Shown here piece after piece: positions 2,978 through 17,654 of a stretch of 26,063 nucleotides of DNA; the stretch's first letter is position 1; every line of letters begins with the position of its first letter. The DNA comes from a virus, in the IMG/VR virus record IMGVR_UViG_3300036398_000164, positions 1 to 26,063 of that record. The stretch is one strand, 5' to 3'. The notes beneath the pieces are model-generated. The model was given only the letters and a program-made list of their open reading frames with translations. It was not told where the DNA came from and ran no database searches. The translations under genes were made by a program, and so were the position numbers.

Positions 2978-3216
2978 AGACTTCTCAGCAATCGCTCAAA
3001 AACTGGACGGCGCAAAAGTGGCGCACCAAGTCCGGCAAACCGTCTTCCAAGACGGGGGAGCGGTATTTGCCTGAGAACGCGATCAAGAACCTGACACCGG
3101 CAGAGTACGCTGCGACCACTCGTGCGAAGCGAGCCGGTAAAAAGGCTGGAAAGCAATTTGTGCCGCAGCCCCCCAAAATCGCCAAGAAGGTGGCAGTGCA
3201 TAGGAAGGCGACATGA
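2974..3216 (+). CDS. DUF5872-like protein, C-terminal-half type
   Basis: An 80-residue basic protein that begins at TTG 2974, overlapping the previous stop (TTGA). It reads SLKNWTAQKWRTKSGKPSS, TGERYLPENAI, TPAEYAATTRAKRAGKKAGK, QFVPQPPKIAKKV. From memory these blocks (W-T-x-x-x-W-x-T-K-S-G, then G-x-RYLP, then ATxRxKRxGxxxGKQFVPQP) match the second half of DUF5872 proteins, whose first half resembles the gene at 2254-2529. The role is unknown; the charge and the company of other basic virion-operon genes suggest nucleic-acid contact. It overlaps the next gene by 4 bases. Confidence 0.65.
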   Translation: MKTSQQSLKNWTAQKWRTKSGKPSSKTGERYLPENAIKNLTPAEYAATTRAKRAGKKAGKQFVPQPPKIAKKVAVHRKAT

Positions 3217-3953
3217 CAACATCGGGAACAGCAGGATTCAACCTCGACCTCAACAACATCGTTGAAGAGGCTTTCGAGCGTTGCGGGAAGGAATTGCGTA
3301 GTGGCTACGATCTTCGTACCGCTCGGCGCAGCCTGAACCTGCTCACCGTTGAATGGGCCAACCGTGGTGTCAACCTCTGGACCATCGAGCAGGGTTCGAT
3401 TGCCCTGAACGAGAACCAAGCGATCTACGACCTGCCGGTGGACACCATCGACCTTTTGGAGCACGTCACGCGCACCGGTACGGGCCAGAACCAGCAAGAC
3501 CTTGCGATCACCCGGATCAGTGTTTCTACCTACGCAACCATCCCGAACAAGAATGCCACAGGGCGTCCGATTCAGGTGTGGGTGGATCGTCAGTCTGGAG
3601 CCACTTATCCGGCTGGTGGCAGGCCGCAAGGAACCGATCCGACCAACGGCATCGACTACCCCAAGATTTACGTCTGGCCTGCGCCGGACCAGAGCAACTA
3701 CTACACGTTCGTGTACTGGCGTCTGCGCCGCATTCAGGATGCTGGCAATGGGGGTATGACCACCCAAGACATCCCGTTCCGTTTCCTGAACTGCCTCATC
3801 GCAGGTTTGTCTTACTACCTCGCGCAGAAGATTGCGCCTGACCGTTTGCAGATGCTCAAGATGCAGTACGACGAGCAGTGGAAGTTTGCCACCGAGGAGG
3901 ACCGCGACAAGTCCGCAGTCCGTTTTGTCCCACGCCGCTACTTCACCGAGTAA
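3213..3953 (+). CDS. Head-tail connector / tail accessory-type protein
   Basis: A 246-residue protein that starts in ATGA with a good AGGAAGG upstream. The N-terminal helical part (NNIVEEAFERCGKEL, YDLRTARRSLNLLTVEWANR, then WTIEQGSIAL) and the following turn to a beta segment (NQAIYDLPVDTIDLLE) are the pattern of phage adaptor proteins that dock beneath the portal (P22 gp4 / T7 gp11 type). The C-terminal part holds PKIYVWPAPD, YYTFVYWRLRRIQD, and a helix with a Tyr/Lys-rich end. It likely forms a ring extending the portal channel. A second adaptor-type gene lies at 4764-5471. The fold assignment is by pattern, not by search. Confidence 0.65.
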   Translation: MTTSGTAGFNLDLNNIVEEAFERCGKELRSGYDLRTARRSLNLLTVEWANRGVNLWTIEQGSIALNENQAIYDLPVDTIDLLEHVTRTGTGQNQQDLAITRISVSTYATIPNKNATGRPIQVWVDRQSGATYPAGGRPQGTDPTNGIDYPKIYVWPAPDQSNYYTFVYWRLRRIQDAGNGGMTTQDIPFRFLNCLIAGLSYYLAQKIAPDRLQMLKMQYDEQWKFATEEDRDKSAVRFVPRRYFTE

Positions 3954-4763: not shown

Positions 4764-5471
4764 GTGAATTACACGGAACTGAAAGCCAGAATCAAGGCGT
4801 ACTGCGAGAACGACTTCCCACAGGCAGTCGGCGCGGGCGGCTTGACTTCAGACGAGCAGATCAACACGTTCATCCAGCAGGCTGAACAGCGCATCTACAA
4901 CTCGGTTCAGTTCCCCTCGCTGCGTAAGAACGTCACCGGTTTAACGACCAACGGCAACAAGTACCTTTCGGCCCCGGGCGATTTCTTGGCGGTCTATTCG
5001 ATTGCCGTCATTGACAACGTGACTGGCGAGTACCTGTACCTGCTCAACAAGGATGTGAACTTCATCCGTGAATCGTTTCCGTCCCCGGCAGATCAGGGTA
5101 AACCCTATTACTACGCTCTCTTTGGTCCGACCACGACAAACAACACGCCGCCCGTTATCACCAACGAGTTGACCTTCCTGCTGGGTCCAACGCCTGATGC
5201 GGTGTACAGCGTCGAGTTGCACTACTACTACTACCCCGAGTCGATCACTGTGGCCTCCAGCGGTCAAACATGGCTAGGCGACAACATGGACTCTGTGCTG
5301 CTTTATGGCGCAATGATGGAGGCAGCGTCCTTCATGAAGTCCGAGAAGGATGTGGTCGAGATGTACATGGGCCGCTACAACGAAGCCCTGATGCTCGCCA
5401 AGCGTCTGGGTGATGGCATGGAGCGTCAGGATGCCTACCGTTCTGGTCAGTTCAGGATGGAGGTGAAGTGA
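4764..5471 (+). CDS. Phage adaptor protein (gp11-like, DUF6682-type)
   Basis: A 235-residue protein with a GTG start at 4764, 3 bases after the previous stop. It has the layout of a phage adaptor: NYTELKARIKAYCEND, INTFIQQAEQRIYNSVQFPS, then beta elements (NKYLSAPGDFLAVYSIAVI, YLYLLNKDVNFIRESFPSP, PYYYALFG), then VELHYYYYPE and a C-terminal helical part (LLYGAMMEAASFMKSEKDVV). From memory this is the adaptor family often numbered DUF6682, related in position to T7 gp11; it would form the ring between portal and tail nozzle or hub. Together with the gene at 3213-3953 it gives two stacked connector candidates. Confidence 0.75.
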   Translation: MNYTELKARIKAYCENDFPQAVGAGGLTSDEQINTFIQQAEQRIYNSVQFPSLRKNVTGLTTNGNKYLSAPGDFLAVYSIAVIDNVTGEYLYLLNKDVNFIRESFPSPADQGKPYYYALFGPTTTNNTPPVITNELTFLLGPTPDAVYSVELHYYYYPESITVASSGQTWLGDNMDSVLLYGAMMEAASFMKSEKDVVEMYMGRYNEALMLAKRLGDGMERQDAYRSGQFRMEVK

Positions 5472-5887
5472 TGGCTTTCACTGGCAACTACACCTGCAAT
5501 ACGTTTAAACTGGGACTGCCGAGCGGTGAATTTAACTTCGCCACCGGCACGACTGACGTGTTCAAGATTGCCCTGTACACCAACGCCGCATCGCTGGATG
5601 AAAACACTGCGGCATACACCACGGATGGTGAGGTGTCTGCGACTGGATACACGGCTGGCGGGGAGGTTTTAACCCCCACTGTGGCGGTTTCCGATGGCAC
5701 ATCGTTCATTGATTTTGGCGACGTGTTTTGGAATGGGGCATTCACTGCCCGTGGGGCGCTGATCTACAAAAACGGTGGAGCAGCAATTTGTGTATTGGAT
5801 TTTGGTGCAGATAGGACATCGACATCTGTTTTTCAGGTGCAATTTCCTGCCAACACCAACAGTTCCGCTTTAATTCGGATTTCATAA
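5471..5887 (+). CDS. Virion or tail structural protein, beta-rich
   Basis: A 138-residue protein. The ATG at 5471 forms TGATG with the previous stop and follows AGGTG; the GTG three bases earlier is less likely. It starts FTGNYTCNTFKLGLPSGEF and continues as alternating beta strands (DVFKIALYTNAASL, TSFIDFGDVFWNG, ARGALIYKNGG, AAICVLDFGADRTS, FQVQFP). The sequence is Thr/Gly/Ala-rich, as in phage tail or fibre proteins, and resembles from memory a common small virion protein of uncultured aquatic phages. A role in the tail or as a fibre base is inferred from the neighbours. A GTTTAAAC site lies at 5503-5510 (codons for T-F-K). Confidence 0.65.
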   Translation: MAFTGNYTCNTFKLGLPSGEFNFATGTTDVFKIALYTNAASLDENTAAYTTDGEVSATGYTAGGEVLTPTVAVSDGTSFIDFGDVFWNGAFTARGALIYKNGGAAICVLDFGADRTSTSVFQVQFPANTNSSALIRIS

Positions 5888-5897
5888 GGAGCATGAG

Positions 5898-6482
5898 ATG
5901 ATCAACAGCAAAGCAAAATCCACCGACAAGATCAGCGCCGAATTGGCGATTGGTGGTGGCGCTCAAGAAGGCGTTCGCGGTGGCGGCGTCTTCTTTTTTG
6001 AGTGCTATGACAAAGACGGCAACCTCAAGTGGAAAGAGCAGTCGAAGAACCTTGTCGTGAACGTCGGTCTGAAAGACATGAACGACAAGTATTTCACTGG
6101 CTCTACCTATACCGCCGCTTGGTATCTGGGTCTGATTACTGGTCCGGGTTCTGGTACGACAATTTCTGCTGGTGACACGATGTTGTCTCACGCTGGCTGG
6201 AATGAAGATGTGGCGTACAGCCAAGCAACTCGTCCTGCTTGCACCTTTGGCGCTGCAACGACTGCCGATCCTTCGGTGATCAGCAACTCGGCTTCCGTGG
6301 CTGTGTTCAGCATCAATGGCACAACGACAATTGCTGGCGCATTCTTGACCAGCAACAACACTAAGAGCGGCACAACCGGCATCTTGTTTTCGGCCTCTGA
6401 TTTCCAGTCGCCGGGTGATCGCGCTGTTGTGAGCGGTGACACACTGAACGTCACCTATCAATTCAGCCTCGACGCAGTTTAA
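5898..6482 (+). CDS. Virion or tail structural protein
   Basis: A 194-residue protein with AAGGAG 6 bases before its ATG. The first 30 residues are charged and Gly-rich. The segment GGVFFFECYDKDGNLKWKEQ and KNLVVNVGLKDMNDKYF is followed by a beta/Thr/Ser/Gly-rich body (AAWYLGLITGPGSGTTISAG, FSINGTTTIAGAFLTSNN, GILFSASDFQSPG) ending in LNVTYQFSLDAV. The pattern of a hydrated beta protein with few cysteines is that of a phage minor tail or fibre protein, and it resembles a recurring protein of aquatic phages. The exact place in the particle is not readable. Confidence 0.65.
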   Translation: MINSKAKSTDKISAELAIGGGAQEGVRGGGVFFFECYDKDGNLKWKEQSKNLVVNVGLKDMNDKYFTGSTYTAAWYLGLITGPGSGTTISAGDTMLSHAGWNEDVAYSQATRPACTFGAATTADPSVISNSASVAVFSINGTTTIAGAFLTSNNTKSGTTGILFSASDFQSPGDRAVVSGDTLNVTYQFSLDAV

Positions 6483-6493
6483 GGAGCACAACA

Positions 6494-6673
6494 ATGGCTA
6501 CTAAATTCACCAAAGGTCAAACCCTCAAACTGAATGCGACCGTTCCTCAAGGACCGGTTATTGCGCTTCGGATGGACGAGGACGGCACATTCTTCTACCT
6601 GATTGAGTGGACTGACGCCTCTGGCGTTAAGCATCAACGCTGGTTTGAAGAGTCTCAACTGACTGCCGCATAA
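6494..6673 (+). CDS. Small SH3-like (YodC/DUF2158-type) protein
   Basis: A 59-residue gene. The ATG at 6494 has an ideal AAGGAG 7 bases upstream and the frame runs to TAA at 6671-6673. It reads MATKFTKGQTLKLNATVPQG, VIALRMDEDGTFFYLIEWTD, HQRWFEESQLTAA. The F-x-K-G-Q-x-V/L-x-L opening, the PxG-V turn, a beta strand ending in I-E-W, and a closing W-F-E-x-x-x-L resemble, with modest confidence, the compact DUF2158/YodC SH3-like fold. It sits between two virion genes, so a small structural or chaperone part is possible. The 8-base gap to the next gene suggests coupled translation. Confidence 0.7.
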   Translation: MATKFTKGQTLKLNATVPQGPVIALRMDEDGTFFYLIEWTDASGVKHQRWFEESQLTAA

Positions 6674-6681
6674 GGTCGGTA

Positions 6682-8064
6682 GTGTTTGGCCTGCTGTCCT
6701 ATTCGGCTGCTCCATACTCATCGCTTGCTGGCGCTGTATATGCGGTAACAGTCGCAGAAACTGCCCGCGCTTCAGACACCCTGAGTGCGCTGGGTCAGTT
6801 CGCCTCTTCAATCAGTGAATCGGCGAGGGCAACAGACAGCATTACCGCTCGCGTTGTTTACACAACCACCGTCACCGAAAGCGCAAGAGCCTCTGACTCC
6901 ATAAGCGCAGCGGTCACCTACCGGGTGACAGTCATTGAACTGGTAACCGCCGCAGACTCTATTTCGGCAGCAGTAACCTTTGGCGGCAACATCGCAGAAA
7001 GCGCCAGAGCGTCCGATACAGTCAGCGCATCCGGCATTTTTGTCTCTCAGGCATTTGAGAGTGCCACCGCATCCGAGACTGCTGTTGCCCGGGTCATTTT
7101 TGTCTCAACGGTCAATGAGTCTGCAAGCGCCTCAGACGCCGTATCAGCCAACTTCATTGTCAATTCTGCTGTTTCTGAGCAGGCGAGCGCATCAGATTCA
7201 ATTTCTGCCTCCGCTCTGTTTTCCAGCAATGTGCAAGAAGCCGCCACGGGTTCCGAGCAGGCATCTGCATCGGTGATCTTTGGTAGCAATGTCAATGAGT
7301 CTGCATCTGCATCTGAAACCGTTTCTGCCGCTGCAACGTTCGCAACCTCTGTTGAAGAGTCTTCCAGTGCAGCCGATCAGGTTTCTGCAATTGCTGAATT
7401 CAACGCCACGGCATCAGAGACCGCAAATGCAGCCGATTCCATTTCTGCTGGCGCTGTGTTTGTCACAGCCGTTTCTGAGCAATCAAACGCCTCTGATGAA
7501 ATTTCTGGATCGGTGATCTTTGGAAGCAGTGTCACTGAGTTTGCCGAAGCGAGCGATTCGATTGCTGCTCAAGTGGAATTTGGCGTCAGCGTTGATGAGT
7601 CGGCTACGGTGTCTGAACTTGTATCGGCAATCGGTTCTTTTGTTGCCACTGCGGCAGAGTCCGCAACCGCAGAGGATCAGACCTTTGCGTCTTTTGCAAT
7701 CAATGCTTCTGTTGAGGAACTGGCATCTGCTTTAGACGAGCAATTTGCTGGCGTCATCTTTATCGCAACCTTGGCAGAAGACGCAACAGCAGCCGATGCG
7801 GTCAGTAGCCTTGTTGACTTTGGCGCTTTGGTGACCGAGCAGTCGTCTGCCGAAGACTCGTCAACCACAAAGCAGATATTCAATGCGTCGGTTTTTGAAC
7901 TTGCCAACGCATCTGACAGCCTTTTGGCTCGTCTGCTGTGGGAAATCATCAACGACAGTCAGTCTGGAACATGGAGTGTGATCAACGCGCAAAGCAGCGG
8001 TACATGGAGCGTTATCAATAACGCTGACACAACAACTTGGAATGTCATAAAGACATCGAACTGA
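6682..8064 (+). CDS. Fibre-like protein of twenty 20-residue repeats
   Basis: A 460-residue protein from a GTG start at 6682. Residues 1-21 are a hydrophobic-small-residue leader (LLSYSAAPYSSLAGAVY). Residues 22-421 are exactly twenty tandem 20-residue units with no insertion or deletion, of pattern x-x-V-x-E-S-A-x-A-S-D-x-x-S-A-x-x-x-F-x. Unit position 5 is Glu in all twenty, position 11 is Asp or Glu in all twenty (16 Asp, 4 Glu), and position 19 is aromatic in 18. Residues 420-460 switch to an 11-residue period anchored by Trp 420, 431, 442 and 453 (SGTWSVIN). Invariant length and a phased acidic ladder suggest a beta-solenoid or triple-beta shaft of a tail fibre; this is inference. Position in the virion region agrees. 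Confidence 0.75.
   Translation: MFGLLSYSAAPYSSLAGAVYAVTVAETARASDTLSALGQFASSISESARATDSITARVVYTTTVTESARASDSISAAVTYRVTVIELVTAADSISAAVTFGGNIAESARASDTVSASGIFVSQAFESATASETAVARVIFVSTVNESASASDAVSANFIVNSAVSEQASASDSISASALFSSNVQEAATGSEQASASVIFGSNVNESASASETVSAAATFATSVEESSSAADQVSAIAEFNATASETANAADSISAGAVFVTAVSEQSNASDEISGSVIFGSSVTEFAEASDSIAAQVEFGVSVDESATVSELVSAIGSFVATAAESATAEDQTFASFAINASVEELASALDEQFAGVIFIATLAEDATAADAVSSLVDFGALVTEQSSAEDSSTTKQIFNASVFELANASDSLLARLLWEIINDSQSGTWSVINAQSSGTWSVINNADTTTWNVIKTSN
6745..7944 (+). repeat. Twenty in-frame 60-base protein repeats
   Basis: Twenty consecutive 60-base units, each encoding 20 residues, lie in one frame of the 6682-8064 gene. They are diverged at the DNA level: I see no long identical blocks, but the encoded Glu (unit position 5) is invariant and position 11 is always Asp or Glu. 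This is a coding repeat kept by selection on the protein, not a CRISPR array or simple satellite. Confidence 0.85.
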
Positions 8065-8065
8065 T

Positions 8066-8536
8066 ATGCCACTTGTCGTCAAAGATCGCGTCCGAGAAAC
8101 CACCACGACCACGGGTACGGGGACGGTGACGCTTGCGGGTGCAGTGACCGGCTTTCAGTCGTTCTCGGCGATTGGAAACGGCAATACCACCTTCTACACC
8201 ATCGCAGGTCAGGGAACCAGCGAGTGGGAGGTGGGCGTAGGTACATACACGTCCTCTGGCACAACGCTGTCCCGCGACAGTGTTTTGGCCTCTTCGAACA
8301 GCGGATCGAAGGTTAACTTCTCCGCAGGAACGAAGGATGTGTTTGTCACCTATCCGGCTGGCAGAACCTTGACAGGAGGCGGTGGAGGCGTTGGTGCGCT
8401 GGTTGTGAACAACACCACAGTGACCGAAAACTACACCGTAGATACCGGAACGAACGCGCAATCAGTCGGACCCATCACTGTGGCAAGTGGTGTCTCTGTG
8501 ACTGTTGCATCTGGTCAAAGATGGCTGGTTGTGTAA
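8066..8536 (+). CDS. Tail fibre or receptor-region protein with a shared C-terminal domain
   Basis: A 156-residue protein that starts one base after the previous stop. The N-terminus VKDRVRETTTTTGTGTVTLA and GFQSFSAIGNGNTTFYTIA is the entry module of many uncultured phage tail proteins, as I remember it. The middle is beta/Gly-rich with LTGGGGGVGA as a linker. The last 42 residues (NNTTVTENYTV, SVGPITVASGVSVTV, QRWLVV) recur in the next protein, at the end of 8560-9321. A role at the distal tail is inferred from composition and neighbours. It is short for a whole fibre and may be one part of a multi-chain tip. Confidence 0.65.
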   Translation: MPLVVKDRVRETTTTTGTGTVTLAGAVTGFQSFSAIGNGNTTFYTIAGQGTSEWEVGVGTYTSSGTTLSRDSVLASSNSGSKVNFSAGTKDVFVTYPAGRTLTGGGGGVGALVVNNTTVTENYTVDTGTNAQSVGPITVASGVSVTVASGQRWLVV

Positions 8537-8559: not shown

Positions 8560-9321
8560 ATGCCATCCACATACTCAACCAACCTAAAGATTGAACTCAT
8601 CGCACTAGGTGAGCAGGTTGGTACTTGGGGAACCACAACCAACGGCAACCTCGGTACGGCGCTGGAACAAGCCATCGTTGGTCGTGTCACTGTCTCGTTT
8701 GCTTCGGATGCGAACAAGACCCTGACCCTCTCCAACACGAACGCCGCGCAGGATGCCCGTGCGCTGTTCCTGAACCTCACATCGGGCGTCAGCCTCACCA
8801 CCACCCGTGACCTGATCGTTCCGGCAATCAACAAGAACTACATCGTTAAGAACGCCACCTCTGGAGGCCAGAGCATTCGGGTTATCGTGGCTGGTGTAGG
8901 TGTGACCATCCCGAACGGCAAGACCGCGCTGATCTACAACGACGGAACGGACATCACCTACCAATTTGATTTCGCGGGTGACCTGACCGTTTCAACGCTG
9001 ACATCGTTGGGCGATGGCACATTCAGCGGCACTGGACAGGTCAAGTTACCTGCCGGAACCACGGGTCAGCGTAGCGGTTCCCCAGTCAACGGGATGATCC
9101 GATACAACTCCAGTCTTTCCCAGTTTGAGGGTTATGGCGCTGGGCAGTGGGGCGGTATTGGTGGCGCACAGGCAGGTGGCGCAATCATGACCAACAAGGA
9201 CGTTGCTACGGTGAGTTACACCATCGCAAGCGGCGAGAATGGCTTGAGTGTTGGACCGGTCACCATCGACTCAGGTGTGACAATCACAGTTGCAACGAAC
9301 CAGCGTTGGTTGATTCTGTAA
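8560..9321 (+). CDS. Tail fibre-type protein
   Basis: A 253-residue protein with GAGGAAAAG upstream. It starts STYSTNLKIELIALGEQVGT and WGTTTNGNLGTALEQAIVGR, an opening widely present in tail-fibre proteins of uncultured phages (Trp-Gly-Thr-Thr-Thr-Asn block), then a beta-rich body (VTVSFASDANKTLTL, FLNLTSGVSLTTTRDLIVPA). Near residues 170-205 is a stretch common in phage fibres (LPAGTTGQRSGSPVNGMIRY, SLSQFEGYGAGQWGG). The last 42 residues repeat the C-terminal domain of the preceding protein. A receptor-binding or fibre-base role is likely; the ligand is not readable. Confidence 0.7.
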   Translation: MPSTYSTNLKIELIALGEQVGTWGTTTNGNLGTALEQAIVGRVTVSFASDANKTLTLSNTNAAQDARALFLNLTSGVSLTTTRDLIVPAINKNYIVKNATSGGQSIRVIVAGVGVTIPNGKTALIYNDGTDITYQFDFAGDLTVSTLTSLGDGTFSGTGQVKLPAGTTGQRSGSPVNGMIRYNSSLSQFEGYGAGQWGGIGGAQAGGAIMTNKDVATVSYTIASGENGLSVGPVTIDSGVTITVATNQRWLIL

Positions 9322-9331
9322 GGAGAGAAGA

Positions 9332-10492
9332 ATGACTTTGATTTTGAATGGAACGACTGGTCTGTCCGATGTTGACGGTACAGCCGCAGCCCCTGCAATT
9401 CGTGGGACTGATGCTGACACTGGTTTGTACTTCCCCACCGCGAACGAAGTTGCCGCTGCCGCTGGTGGCGTTGCTGTTTGGAATGCTGCCAGCACGTTTG
9501 GCTTCAAGAACCGCATCATCAACGGCGCGATGGTGATCGACCAGAGGAACGCTGGGGCGAGTGTTACTTTTGATAACGGTGTGTACCCAGTTGATCGCTT
9601 TAGAAGTAACGCCTCGCAGACAGGTAAGGCAACAGCGCAACAAAACGCTGGTTCCGTAACTCCGCCAAGCGGTTTTAGTAACTATCTTGGGATTACATCC
9701 TCTAGCGCATATTCTGTTTCATCTTCGGATTACTTCACAATTCAACATAACATAGAAGGTTTGAATGTGTCTGATCTTGGGTGGGGCGCTGCTGGGGCAC
9801 AAACCGTAACACTGTCTTTTTGGGTTCGGTCAAGTCTGACGGGCACTTTCGGCGGCGCGTTGTCAAACAGCGCGTTTAATAGGTCTTACCCGTTCTCGTT
9901 CACAATTAGCGCCGCTAACACATGGGAACAAAAGTCTGTCACTATTGCCGGGGATACCAGCGGGACTTGGTTGACCACAAACGGCGTTGGCATCAGATTG
10001 TTTTTTGGGTTGGGGGTTGGCTCAACCGTTTCCACTACTGCTGGCGCTTGGGCGGCTGGTAATTACTATGCACCCACAGGCGCAACCAGCGTAGTCGGAA
10101 CCAACGGAGCCACCTTTTACGTCACAGGAGTTCAGTTTGAGCGCGGTAGCGCAGCAACGAGTTTTGACTTCCGTGACTATGGGCGTGAGTTGATGCTGTG
10201 TCAGAGGTATTACCAAGAGATTGGTACCGCAGCGGGTAACGAAATAATTTATCTCTTTTATACAGCCGCTGCTACTACTTATTATCTTCCCATGCCGCTA
10301 CCAGTACCAATGAGAGCAACGCCAACGGCAACAGTAGCGGGAACTTGGGGTGTAGGCAGTGTAAATACACTGACAGTTTCATCTGGCACTAACTCGTTTC
10401 GCTTTAACATTGCCACATCAAGCGGTGGGAATAATGCTTTCTTCCAAAATAACGGTGCTGGTGCCAAATTAACATTTGCAATTGAGTTGTAA
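9332..10492 (+). CDS. Receptor-binding fibre protein with a galactose-binding-like module
   Basis: A 386-residue protein with AAGGAG upstream. Residues 1-55 are the anchor ([30 protein letters not shown]). From about residue 60 there is a module [52 protein letters not shown] and [20 protein letters not shown], a set I recognise from many phage tail proteins and which resembles carbohydrate-binding jelly-roll modules. The last quarter is a different, more variable region ending in the FAIEL stop. Base composition visibly shifts to AT-richer DNA after about 9600, suggesting replacement of the receptor part by recombination. A small gene at 10495-10668 follows at once. Confidence 0.75.
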
Positions 10493-14403: not shown

Positions 14404-16284
14404 ATGGCATTCACGAAGGTCAAGATCAAACCGGGGGTCAATCGAGACACGACTAACTACGCCAACGAGGGTGGTTACTACGAGTCCGAGAAGGTCCGCT
14501 TCCTCTCCGGCTACCCGCAGAAATTGGGTGGCTGGGAGAGTGACCCCACGGTTTCGATCAAGGGTATTTGCCGCAGCCTGTTCAACTACATCACCAGCAA
14601 CAGCGACAACATCCTCTGGATCGGCACGACCAACCACCTCTATGCGGAGGTAGGCGGTAACCTGCAAGACTTGACCCCCGCTCGGGCAACGTTTACATCG
14701 CCAGCCAGCAATAACTGCTTTGACACGACGAACGGCTCAAGGATCGTCAACGTCAACATTGTGGGCCACGGCGTGACTGCTACCGGGCAATTTGTGACCT
14801 TTTCCGGTGTAGTTGGGTCCGGCTCTCCTGCGACGATTGGCGGCATCCCGGAGGCAGAGTTCAACGCCGAGTTTCAGGTCTACGCGATTGTTGATGCCAA
14901 CAATTTTCAGATTGAGACGACCACCGCTGCCACCAGCACCACCAGCAATCAAGGTGGTACTGGCATTACGGCAGTCTTCCCCATCATCCCGGGCAACGAT
15001 ATTGACTTGTACGGCTATGGCTGGAGTGCCGGTCCTTGGAGCCGTCTGGGCTGGGGAACGGGTACGGTGACACCTCTGGTGATCGGTCAACGAGATTGGT
15101 GGTACGACAATTTCGACAACGATTCGGTGATGAACATCCGTAACGGTACGCCCTACTACTGGGCGTATGAGGCCACCATCAGCGTGAGAGCCATACCCAT
15201 GTCCACGGCTGCGACGAATGCCGGGTTTGTGGGTGCTGACGTTCCCGCCGAGGTGATGCAGTTGATGGTGTCTCAGAACGACCGCCATCTTTGCGCTTTT
15301 GGTGCAACGCCGTTTGGCGGTGGCAACTTTGATCCCATGCTAATTCGCTGGGCAACGCAAGGACAGCCACTCAACTGGACGCCCACAGCCACCAACTCGG
15401 CTGGCTTTTATCGGGTCTCTCGTGGCTCACGGATTGTTCGGGCAATCCCGACCCGTCAGGAAACCCTGATCTTGACAGACTCCAGTATGTACTCGATGCA
15501 GTTCACGGGTACGACCGACGTATTTGCTTTCCAAGAGTTGGCTGACAACATCTCGATTGCCAGCCCTCGATCCATCGTTGTGGCAAACAACGTGGCTTAC
15601 TGGATGGGTCAGGACAAGTTCTATATGTACTCCGGTCGCGTTGAGACGCTGCCCTGTACTCTCAGGAACGAGGTCTTCAACAACATCAACTTTGAGCAGC
15701 AGGCCCAGATCATCTGCGGGACCAATGAACGCTGGAACGAGGTGTGGTGGATTTACCCGACAGGCAACAACACATCGCCGGACTCCTACGTCATATACAA
15801 CTACGCCGAGCAGATTTGGTACTACGGGACCATTGAGCGCACGGCATGGCTGGATTCGCCTCTGCGTCTTTACCCGCAAGCAATCAACGGGCAGTACCTG
15901 TACAACCATGAAGTAGGGATTGATGCAGACGGTCTGCCGATGACCTCCTACATCGTCACGTCCGACTTTGACATCGTCGATGGGGATGAATTCCTGTTGA
16001 TCAAGCGGATGATTCCTGACATCAACTTTGCCGGATCGACGGCTGCAACTCCTCGGGTGTTGCTGACAGTCAAGCCGAGAAACTTCCCCGGCTCCAACTA
16101 CAACACCACCAACCAGCCGCTGGTGGAGTTGTCATCGACTGTGCCGGTTGAGCAGTACACGGAGCAGATTTTCATTCGCGCTCGCGCTCGTCAGATGGGT
16201 CTGAAGATTTACTCCGACGAGTTGGGTGTGATGTGGCAAATGGGTCTTCCGCGACTCGACGGACGGAAAGATGGCAAGCGATGA
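14404..16284 (+). CDS. P22 gp10-like tail hub / packaged-DNA stabilisation protein
   Basis: A 626-residue protein whose ATG follows GTTTAAAC with no spacer and no strong Shine-Dalgarno. The start KIKPGVNRDTTNYANEGGYY, SEKVRFLSGYPQKLGGWE is one I know from large podovirus hub proteins of the P22 gp10 type; the rest is repeated beta blades with Trp/Tyr-rich strands (LLFNYI-like, NILWIGTTNHLYAEV, LILTDSSMYSMQFTG, YVIYNYAEQIWYYG). Residues about 100-200 are a Thr/Ser/Gly-rich insert (VNIVGHGVTATGQFVTFSG, PEAEFNAEFQVYAIVDANNF), like an added beta domain common in such phages. It is longer than P22 gp10 (472 residues). It likely forms the hub that closes the portal channel. Confidence 0.7.
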   Translation: MAFTKVKIKPGVNRDTTNYANEGGYYESEKVRFLSGYPQKLGGWESDPTVSIKGICRSLFNYITSNSDNILWIGTTNHLYAEVGGNLQDLTPARATFTSPASNNCFDTTNGSRIVNVNIVGHGVTATGQFVTFSGVVGSGSPATIGGIPEAEFNAEFQVYAIVDANNFQIETTTAATSTTSNQGGTGITAVFPIIPGNDIDLYGYGWSAGPWSRLGWGTGTVTPLVIGQRDWWYDNFDNDSVMNIRNGTPYYWAYEATISVRAIPMSTAATNAGFVGADVPAEVMQLMVSQNDRHLCAFGATPFGGGNFDPMLIRWATQGQPLNWTPTATNSAGFYRVSRGSRIVRAIPTRQETLILTDSSMYSMQFTGTTDVFAFQELADNISIASPRSIVVANNVAYWMGQDKFYMYSGRVETLPCTLRNEVFNNINFEQQAQIICGTNERWNEVWWIYPTGNNTSPDSYVIYNYAEQIWYYGTIERTAWLDSPLRLYPQAINGQYLYNHEVGIDADGLPMTSYIVTSDFDIVDGDEFLLIKRMIPDINFAGSTAATPRVLLTVKPRNFPGSNYNTTNQPLVELSSTVPVEQYTEQIFIRARARQMGLKIYSDELGVMWQMGLPRLDGRKDGKR

Positions 16285-17654
16285 TCATCAAAAAGTTCGT
16301 CGCCCCGGCTCTTCCGATCCCGAAGAGGGATTACGACCAGACGCAGCAAACGGATTTGATCCGCGCCCTGCGTCTTTATTTCAACCTGTTGGATGACTAT
16401 CTAAACCAGATCACAAACGAGGTAAACGGATTTATGGACCCATTCTCACCAACATCGCTCGATGCGTTCGGCAGGCTGCGGGTTAGTGAGCCGTATACCC
16501 TCTTTGACAGCCAGAACCGCTACGCCGCCGACAACCAGTTTGATGTCGCAACCACCGGCACGGGCACAACAACCTTCCTATCCAACGAGGCAGCAATCAA
16601 GATGGAGGTCACTGGGGCTGGTGTTGGCTCGGTGACTCGTCAGTCTTATCGCTCTTTTCCCTATCAGCCGGGTAAGGGTCTTTTGCTGCTTGCGACTTTC
16701 GTGATGGACTCCAGCACCAGCGCCAACTTGACGCAGAGCGTGGGTTACTTCAACGACAGCAATGGTGTGTTTTTTAAGCGCACTGGGTCAACCAACTCGT
16801 TTGTGCTGCGCTCCAGTTCCACCCCTACCCCCGGAACACCCAGTGACGTTCGCACAGTCAATCAGGCAGATTGGAATGGCGACAAACTCGATGGCACTGG
16901 CGAGTCTGGGTTGACCCTTGACCCAAGCAAAGCGCAGATTCTCTGGATGGACTTTGAGTGGCTGGGCGTGGGTTCGGTGCGCTGCGGATTCATCATCGAT
17001 GGGACGTACATCACTTGTCACACCTTTGACAACGCAAACGAAATCACATCGGTCTACATGACCACGGCGATCCTGCCTGTGCGGTATTCAATTACCAGCA
17101 CAACCGCTGCCGTGGCTGCATCGATGAAAGCCATTTGCTGCTCAGTAATTTCTGATGGCGGCTTTGAGCAAACATCTATAGATCATGTGGCAAGACGGAC
17201 AACGGTGTTTTCCAACATCGATACCGCAGCGACGTTTTACCCCATCGTCTCTATTCGCATGGCGTCTGGGCGCACAGGATCGGTAGTTTTGCCCAATCGG
17301 ACGCAGTTCCTGCCTTTGACCAATCAGAACTATGAAGTGGTTCTTTTGAAGAACCCGACACTGACTGGCGCAACGTGGGCAGCAACCGTCCCCAGTGACA
17401 GCAACGTTGAATTTGATGTCGCAGCAACAGCGATTTCCAGTGTTGGGACTATTGCCCAGACTGACTACGTCACCTCAAGCGGTAGCGGCGGCACAAGCAT
17501 TACAGCCGCCCCCACGGGATACAACTGGGATTTGCAGTTGGGAGCAACCGTTGCCGGGGTCAGCGACATCTACACATTGGCAGTTCGCACCGTGGACGGT
17601 GCAACTAAGGGTAGCGGGGTAGGTTCCCTGTCCTTTTACGACCTGACCCAATAG
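16281..17654 (+). CDS. Large tail protein (fibre or appendage base)
   Basis: A 457-residue protein. I chose ATG 16281, which forms ATGA with the hub stop; an ATG at 16233 would add 16 residues inside the hub gene and is less likely. It starts IIKKFVAPALPIPKRDYDQT and DLIRALRLYFNLLDDYLNQI, an attachment helix with the Pro/Tyr-rich entry typical of fibre proteins. From about residue 75 it is a beta-rich body (FDSQNRYAADNQFDVATTGT, GVGSVTRQSYRSFPYQPGKG, LWMDFEWLGVGSVRCGFIID), like lectin-like or LamG-type folds. Position next to the hub suggests it attaches there. No enzymatic motif is seen. Confidence 0.65.
   Translation: MIIKKFVAPALPIPKRDYDQTQQTDLIRALRLYFNLLDDYLNQITNEVNGFMDPFSPTSLDAFGRLRVSEPYTLFDSQNRYAADNQFDVATTGTGTTTFLSNEAAIKMEVTGAGVGSVTRQSYRSFPYQPGKGLLLLATFVMDSSTSANLTQSVGYFNDSNGVFFKRTGSTNSFVLRSSSTPTPGTPSDVRTVNQADWNGDKLDGTGESGLTLDPSKAQILWMDFEWLGVGSVRCGFIIDGTYITCHTFDNANEITSVYMTTAILPVRYSITSTTAAVAASMKAICCSVISDGGFEQTSIDHVARRTTVFSNIDTAATFYPIVSIRMASGRTGSVVLPNRTQFLPLTNQNYEVVLLKNPTLTGATWAATVPSDSNVEFDVAATAISSVGTIAQTDYVTSSGSGGTSITAAPTGYNWDLQLGATVAGVSDIYTLAVRTVDGATKGSGVGSLSFYDLTQ

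What the first reader, a model, noticed from the sequence alone, without database searches (positions are those of the whole stretch)
6745..7944. Fibre-like protein built of exactly twenty 20-residue repeats with an acidic ladder
Twenty units of exactly 20 residues run without an insertion or deletion. Unit position 5 is Glu in all twenty, position 11 is Asp or Glu in all twenty, position 19 is aromatic in 18. Such invariant phasing implies a regular fold, probably a beta-solenoid or trimeric beta shaft, and the forty stacked acids could bind a row of cations such as calcium. DNA repeats are diverged, so the phase is kept by selection on structure. I know of no named family with this exact consensus.
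Basis: partly seen in the sequence, partly recalled or inferred. Interest (0 to 1): 0.75.

Follow-up and report, generated by a model that had tools for sequence, protein, structure and literature searches.

The report
Phage fibre with a swappable core
A protein in a virus of aquatic bacteria, probably part of its tail, looks like a rod built from 20 equal-length sheet-forming segments with a line of acids along it, and related viruses carry longer, shorter or differently built rods between the same two end pieces at the same place in the genome.

Summary
ORF 6682-8064 (460 aa) is a 21-aa N-cap, exactly 20 units of 20 aa, and a 39-aa C-cap; Glu at 5 in 20/20, Asp/Glu at 11 in 20/20, aromatic at 19 in 18/20. 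In 85 distinct family proteins 1023 of 1084 unit spacings are 20 aa, 59 are 21, 2 are 22. Odd positions are conserved, even ones vary: beta alternation through the whole unit. Two AlphaFold2 models of low to middling confidence give two strands per unit, nearest to curli CsgA; AF2 is known to over-predict such folds. The gene lies between an SU10_adaptor gene and tail-fibre genes and diverges faster than its neighbours. New: the C-cap is a second exact repeat (Trp every 11 aa, 287 of 288), and the same caps at the same locus enclose a different 22-aa core (VTGVQxTGxVG) in other phages, so the core is exchangeable. No Pfam or PHROG family matches. Most likely a tail-fibre shaft; cation binding is unproven. 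New variant of a known kind.

The parts
6682..8064 (+). repeat-fibre gene (REP), GTG start, 460 aa plus stop
   Evidence: GTG aligns with the ATG of relatives (MYGLLPYS...) in A1
6682..6744 (+). N-cap, 21 aa (VFGLLSYSAAPYSSLAGAVYA); family motif around F-[SA]-x-[AT]-P-[FY]-[SA]-[SA]-[LT]
   Evidence: N-cap HMM also hits 3 ORFs with the other core
6745..7944 (+). 20 tandem units of exactly 20 aa, consensus x-x-V-x-E-S-A-x-A-S-D-S-I-S-A-x-V-x-F-x
7939..8061 (+). C-cap: WEIINDSQ followed by Trp every 11 residues (the first Trp-Glu are positions 19-20 of unit 20)
4764..5471 (+). SU10-type adaptor protein (head-to-tail), upstream anchor of the locus
   Evidence: Pfam PF24175 E 7.8e-25
5468..5887 (+). 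conserved neighbour, PHROG 644 (unknown function)
   Evidence: in 66 of 68 loci
5898..6482 (+). conserved neighbour, PHROG 8123 (unknown function)
   Evidence: in 67 of 68 loci
6494..6673 (+). small 59-aa ORF directly before REP
8066..8536 (+). downstream tail-fibre-like gene (first ~97 aa match proteins annotated as tail fibres in named phages)
   Evidence: in 62 of 68 loci
8560..9321 (+). downstream gene; weak hits to tail-fibre and virion PHROGs
   Evidence: in 42 of 68 loci
9332..10492 (+). tail fibre protein (PHROG 4492)
   Evidence: E 3.9e-58

Best explanation
REP is a structural protein of the tail-fibre cassette of a short-tailed-type phage. A short N-cap docks it, a run of 20-aa beta units forms a stiff rod whose length is set by the number of units, and an 11-aa Trp-repeat C-cap ends it. 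In each unit the odd positions (V3 E5 A7 A9 D11 I/V13 A15 V17 F19) face the core and the even ones face outward; the core most likely folds as a two-strand beta-arch (curli-like solenoid) with Glu5 and Asp11 on either side of the small A7-x-A9 arc, forming two acid ladders along the axis, probably neutralised by cations. The outer face is free to vary. The whole core is an exchangeable cassette: other phages carry a 22-aa VTGVQxTGxVG core between the same caps at the same place. Shown: repeat anatomy, phase, face constraint, locus, core exchange. Inferred: virion location, tail rather than head, docking and capping roles. Weakly inferred: solenoid fold and cation binding.
For: Exact anatomy. 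85 distinct proteins, 1084 spacings: 1023 of 20, 59 of 21, 2 of 22. 940 distinct units: acid at 5 in 96.4%, at 11 in 97.7%, both in 94.4%; information in odd columns 16.89 against 5.72 bits in even (149 of 200,000 column permutations as high); 50 of 61 long spacings keep E5, D11 and the F19-type residue. In units 1-7 against 8 relatives, pN is 0.11-0.17 at odd and 0.36-0.45 at even codons. AF2: two strands per unit in both models, top structural match CsgA 8c50 Z 30.6 (310 aligned, rmsd 8.2) and Z 23.9 (230 aligned, rmsd 8.4), next rows 17.2 and 15.6. Locus: SU10_adaptor upstream (in 10 of 11 relative records), neighbours conserved in 62-67 of 68 loci, tail fibre genes downstream. REP is the most diverged gene of the block: against L015, adaptor 94%, REP units 53-65%, next gene 97%. 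Core exchange: C-cap HMM hits 27 of 3726 ORFs in the other-core loci, best 1.2e-10; N-cap HMM hits 3; the other-core ORF is downstream of the PHROG 644 gene in 60 of 80, within 28 nt in 46 of those 60; 0 of 134 REP loci carry one; core type changes 4 times on the adaptor tree. L089 carries between units a ~190-aa domain shared with tail proteins of Rhodobacter and Dinoroseobacter phages.
Against: No virion proteomics or structure was found for any member, so tail location is by gene order alone. Mean pLDDT 62 and 53, C-caps under 50; AF2 wrongly builds solenoids with stacked acids from perfect repeats, and an uncompensated inward acid ladder is exactly that warning sign (our repeats are diverged, which lowers but does not remove it). 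Foldseek gave no PDB match at E <= 0.001. Phage fibres of known structure are mostly trimers (recalled; SU10), and a trimer could not be modelled. The other core lacks an acid ladder yet fills the same slot, so the ladder is not required for the function. Column coupling between neighbouring units was weak and did not discriminate folds. Without the deepest rows well-supported branches force only 2 core changes.
Confidence: 0.6

Rival explanations
1. Same role, different fold: three chains wrap into a trimeric beta shaft (triple beta-spiral or triple-stranded beta-helix), the odd face packing on the three-fold axis, acids meeting around cations there.
For: SU10 long and short tail fibres are trimers (PMC9509320, passages read). 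Alternation fits any beta shaft. A monomer model cannot show it and would come out with low confidence, as seen.
Against: Both monomer models agree on regular strand pairs, with block pLDDT up to 85 in the middle of the window protein. Position 9 takes Gly in about a third of units, but no position shows the invariant Gly or Pro turn that adenovirus-type shafts have (shaft consensus recalled, not fetched).
Confidence: 0.3
2. REP is not in the tail: it decorates the head or is a non-virion protein of the late operon.
For: No proteomics; neighbours PHROG 644 and 8123 have no known function.
Against: It sits between the adaptor gene and tail fibre genes in nearly all loci; SU10's adaptor gp11 and long tail fibre proteins gp12, gp13 are consecutively numbered; L036 joins REP units to a 644-aa Gly-rich part with a weak match to PHROG 863 'tail fiber assembly'; L089 holds a domain shared with phage tail proteins.
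Confidence: 0.15
3. The repeats are a low-complexity, disordered linker (Ala/Ser rich) whose period comes from slippage.
For: Composition is 86 Ala and 77 Ser of 400; pLDDT falls below 50 at the last units and C-cap.
Against: DNA units are too diverged for recent slippage (third codon positions 30% identical); strict phase across 85 proteins; strong face-specific constraint; Val, Ile, Phe at fixed positions.
Confidence: 0.05

Closest known systems
VTGVQ-type 22-aa repeat proteins of the same phage locus (e.g. DSL-LC04 WJZ48131.1; Pelagibacter phage HTVC023P gp68), annotated hypothetical
   Same: Same locus, same N-cap type in part of them, same 11-aa Trp C-cap
   Different: Core unit 22 aa (249 of 260 counted spacings), Gly-rich, no acid ladder; the unit HMM of REP finds none of them
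Curli subunit CsgA (PDB 8c50) and curlin repeats
   Same: Two strands and two arcs per unit, alternating inward/outward residues, whole-unit length variation; top structural match of both models
   Different: Curlin unit averages 23 aa with an N-x-psi-x-psi-x-Q core and Asn/Gln ladders (PMC10192328, passages read); REP is 20 aa with Glu/Asp ladders, no Pfam curlin hit, a phage gene
SU10 long tail fibre proteins gp12/gp13 (Kuravirus)
   Same: Position next to the adaptor; fibre role proposed here
   Different: gp12 is 786 residues and has a coiled-coil part; no sequence relation was tested
Ca-dependent antifreeze and RTX beta-solenoids
   Same: Inward acid stacks with bound calcium are a real precedent (statement in PMC11795689)
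   Different: RTX and antifreeze units are about 18-19 aa with Gly-rich Asp loops (recalled); REP has no GGxGxD motif

Membership tests
Curlin (CsgA) family | curlin sequence motif recognised by its Pfam model | tested here: not met
   Pfam scans of P0001 and five relatives give no curlin hit
Curlin (CsgA) family | inward Asn and Gln ladders, N-x-psi-x-psi-x-Q, about 23 aa per unit | tested here: not met
   positions 5 and 11 are Glu/Asp; unit 20 aa; definition
Curlin (CsgA) family | two-strand beta-arch solenoid | tested here: inconclusive
   AF2 models resemble it at low confidence, with a documented AF2 bias
RTX calcium beta-roll | GGxGxDxUx nonapeptides (recalled) | tested here: not met
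   no such motif in the printed units; no Pfam RTX hit
Phage tail fibre (role) | encoded in the tail-fibre cassette | tested here: met
   adaptor upstream, fibre genes downstream
Phage tail fibre (role) | present in the virion tail | not testable with these tools
   no record with the acid-ladder core found among 50,697 phage records
Phage tail fibre (role) | homotrimer | not testable with these tools
   only monomer prediction offered
Cap-core-cap repeat fibre (proposed here) | N-cap, WE[IL]INDS junction, C-cap with Trp every 11 aa | tested here: met

The most novel reading that the evidence does not exclude
These phages use a metal-stiffened single-chain beta-arch solenoid as a fibre shaft: two parallel rows of buried carboxylates about 4.8 A apart bind a file of cations, so the rod would stiffen or soften with calcium or magnesium in the water. 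Length is tuned by whole units (5 to 48), and the whole shaft is swapped as a cassette with a Gly-rich shaft that needs no metal, while the docking and tip caps stay.
Probability: 0.22. Interest if true: 0.8.

Novelty: new variant of a known kind. Interest (0 to 1): 0.5.

Why it matters
It gives an unnamed class of aquatic-phage proteins a clear anatomy: two conserved caps and an exchangeable, length-variable beta core. The acid-ladder core is a clean test case for whether a buried row of like charges in a repeat protein is real (metal-filled) or an AlphaFold artefact, and a possible scaffold for rods of chosen length. It also points to a gene that changes much faster than its neighbours, likely at the phage-host contact.

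Tried and rejected
Multiples-of-five idea: close relatives have 15 or 20 units, others 5 and 25, but the wider set has 6, 9, 11, 12, 14, 16, 17, 19, 22, 23 and 48, so no rule of five; slight extra likeness at unit distances 4 and 5 fits block duplication. Column coupling within and between units as fold evidence: signals were small and mixed with lineage effects. Named family: none in Pfam or PHROGs for REP; relatives of A1 had only scattered weak PHROG hits, best 0.0064; PADLOC and NCBIfam were not searched. PDB by sequence: only chance hits. Bacterial genomes: 2 stretches matched WE[IL]INDSQ in the 84,980-species collection, none a relative; this scan rests on one C-cap pattern. Phage records: no tblastn hit for three members, but BLAST's low-complexity filter was on. 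Literature: searches for phage 20-residue repeats, curli-like fibre, and repeat number showed no paper on this family in the listings; that is the only basis for saying it is not in print. My first belief that DSL-LC04 is an isolate was wrong: its paper says metagenome-assembled (passages read); an early note of mine still says isolate. Triple beta-spiral papers were only listed.

Full report
OBSERVATION. The gene is larger: a GTG-started ORF 6682-8064 with a 21-aa N-cap and a 39-aa C-cap. Codon positions 1, 2, 3 of the units agree 55, 55 and 30%, so the period is kept by selection on protein.

FAMILY. One scan of IMG/VR with the protein gave 68 loci; a scan with the alignment gave 166 relatives, 80 kept. 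Parsing every ORF with WE[IL]INDS gave 85 distinct proteins and 1169 units, the window's included. Two rows are fragments with 2 units; the other 83 have 5 to 48. Spacings: 1023 of 1084 are 20, 59 are 21, 2 are 22, although 12 to 31 were allowed. In 50 of the 61 long spacings the acids and the aromatic-type residue all stay in place, the extra residue lying between Asp11 and position 19; the other 11 lack one or more of these residues. Of 940 distinct units, 96.4% have an acid at 5, 97.7% at 11, 94.4% both. Lys or Arg occur at none of positions 3, 5, 7, 9, 11, 13, 19; net charge averages -2.3 per unit, -44 for the window's 20.

FACES. Column information is 16.89 bits over odd and 5.72 over even positions; 149 of 200,000 permutations reach this. 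Position 17 is an exception, no more conserved than 16. Against eight close relatives, in units 1-7, nonsynonymous difference is 0.11-0.17 per site at odd codons and 0.36-0.45 at even ones (synonymous sites are near saturation, so ratios are rough). This is what one expects of strands with a fixed inner and a free outer face.

FOLD. AF2 on the window protein with 26 sequences: mean pLDDT 62.3, pTM 0.52, blocks within residues 21-290 at 64-85, strands at unit positions 20-7 and about 11-17. A second protein, the 11-unit relative L097, with 24 sequences: pLDDT 52.9, same strands. VIA-align puts CsgA 8c50 first for both (Z 30.6 and 23.9, rmsd 8.2 and 8.4), well above the next rows (17.2, 15.6); Foldseek has no PDB hit at E <= 0.001, and in BFVD five hits at E <= 0.001, four of them uncharacterised proteins of uncultured Caudovirales phages. 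Against this, PMC11795689 shows that AF2 makes confident false solenoids from perfect repeats, with stacked acids as a warning sign, and names calcium-dependent antifreeze solenoids as a real exception (passages). Our units are diverged (38% mean identity), but the caution stands. I hold 'beta rod' as likely, 'solenoid' as somewhat better than even, 'cation row' as open.

LOCUS. The order adaptor (SU10_adaptor), PHROG 644, PHROG 8123, REP, tail-fibre-like gene is kept: these are found in 65, 66, 67, 67 and 62 of 68 loci; L024 is one locus where the order differs. Ten of 11 relative records hold SU10_adaptor; the eleventh (that of L036) does not. In phage SU10 the adaptor is gp11 and the long tail fibre gp12 and gp13. 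Genes for virion proteins, an endolysin and an ejection-type protein follow in the window; the protein at 16233-17654 is 70% identical to one of DSL-LC04 and 44% to one of Puniceispirillum phage HMO-2011.

RAPID CHANGE. Against L015 amino-acid identity runs 94 (adaptor), 93, 85, REP 65 and 53, C-cap 79, then 97 and 94%; synonymous divergence peaks in REP. This fits exchange of alleles centred on REP. Units 1-7 and several of the last six correspond between relatives; the five extra units are in the middle.

EXCHANGEABLE CORE. At the matching place DSL-LC04 has a 376-aa protein with 22-aa VTGVQxTGxVG units and the same type of C-cap. A scan with it gave 115 relatives, 80 kept. A C-cap HMM from the REP family hits 27 of 3726 ORFs there at E <= 1e-3, best 1.2e-10; 22 of the 44 ORFs that pass a strict VTG pattern are among them. 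An N-cap HMM hits 3, all with the VTG core by eye, and none of the 44. Of 80 VTG ORFs (looser pattern) 60 have the PHROG 644 gene upstream, 46 within 28 nt; 58 have the adaptor; 0 of 134 REP loci hold a VTG ORF (loci overlap in part). On a tree of 75 adaptors the core type changes 4 times, with long-branch warnings; without the 7 deepest rows still 4, of which 2 are forced. L167 (VTG) and L027 (REP) share 75% of the adaptor. HTVC023P gp68, of a Pelagibacter phage, has the same layout by eye.

OTHER JOINS. L089 has 4 units, then about 190 aa without Pfam or PHROG match that resembles part of tail proteins in 26 phage records, 22 of them Rhodobacter phages, then 22 units. L036 has a 644-aa part, Gly-rich in its second half, in place of the N-cap, weakly matching PHROG 863 (1.3e-5). 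The C-cap has Trp every 11 residues in 287 of 288 spacings.

VERDICT. An ordinary place (phage tail-fibre cassette) with an unnamed, very regular and modular protein; new variant of a known kind.

Noticed in passing
7939-8061 and C-caps of relatives: The C-cap is a second exact-phase repeat: Trp every 11 residues in 287 of 288 spacings over 85 proteins; 2, 3, 4 or 6 Trp per cap, never 5.
   Followed up: partly
1774-1824 and 2927-2977: Two otherwise different small proteins end in the same tag, KVSSAS(Q/K)RADGIAQRGKTRGRIV; 22 loci of relatives have it, up to 3 copies each. Could be a virion or nucleic-acid tag.
   Followed up: partly
3213-3953 and 4764-5471; records behind L106, L123, L063 and others: Relative genomes often hold two SU10_adaptor matches, suggesting a duplicated adaptor; whether 3213-3953 is the second one was not tested.
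   Followed up: no
8066-8536 and 8560-9321: Two neighbouring fibre-like proteins share a C-terminal end (SVGPITVASGVSVTVASGQRWLVV and SVGPVTIDSGVTITVATNQRWLIL), by eye.
   Followed up: no
6494-6673: A 59-aa ORF preceded by AAGGAG lies just before REP.
   Followed up: no
L089:4611-5195: A domain inserted within the REP array is shared with GTA-like tail proteins of Rhodobacter and Dinoroseobacter phages.
   Followed up: partly
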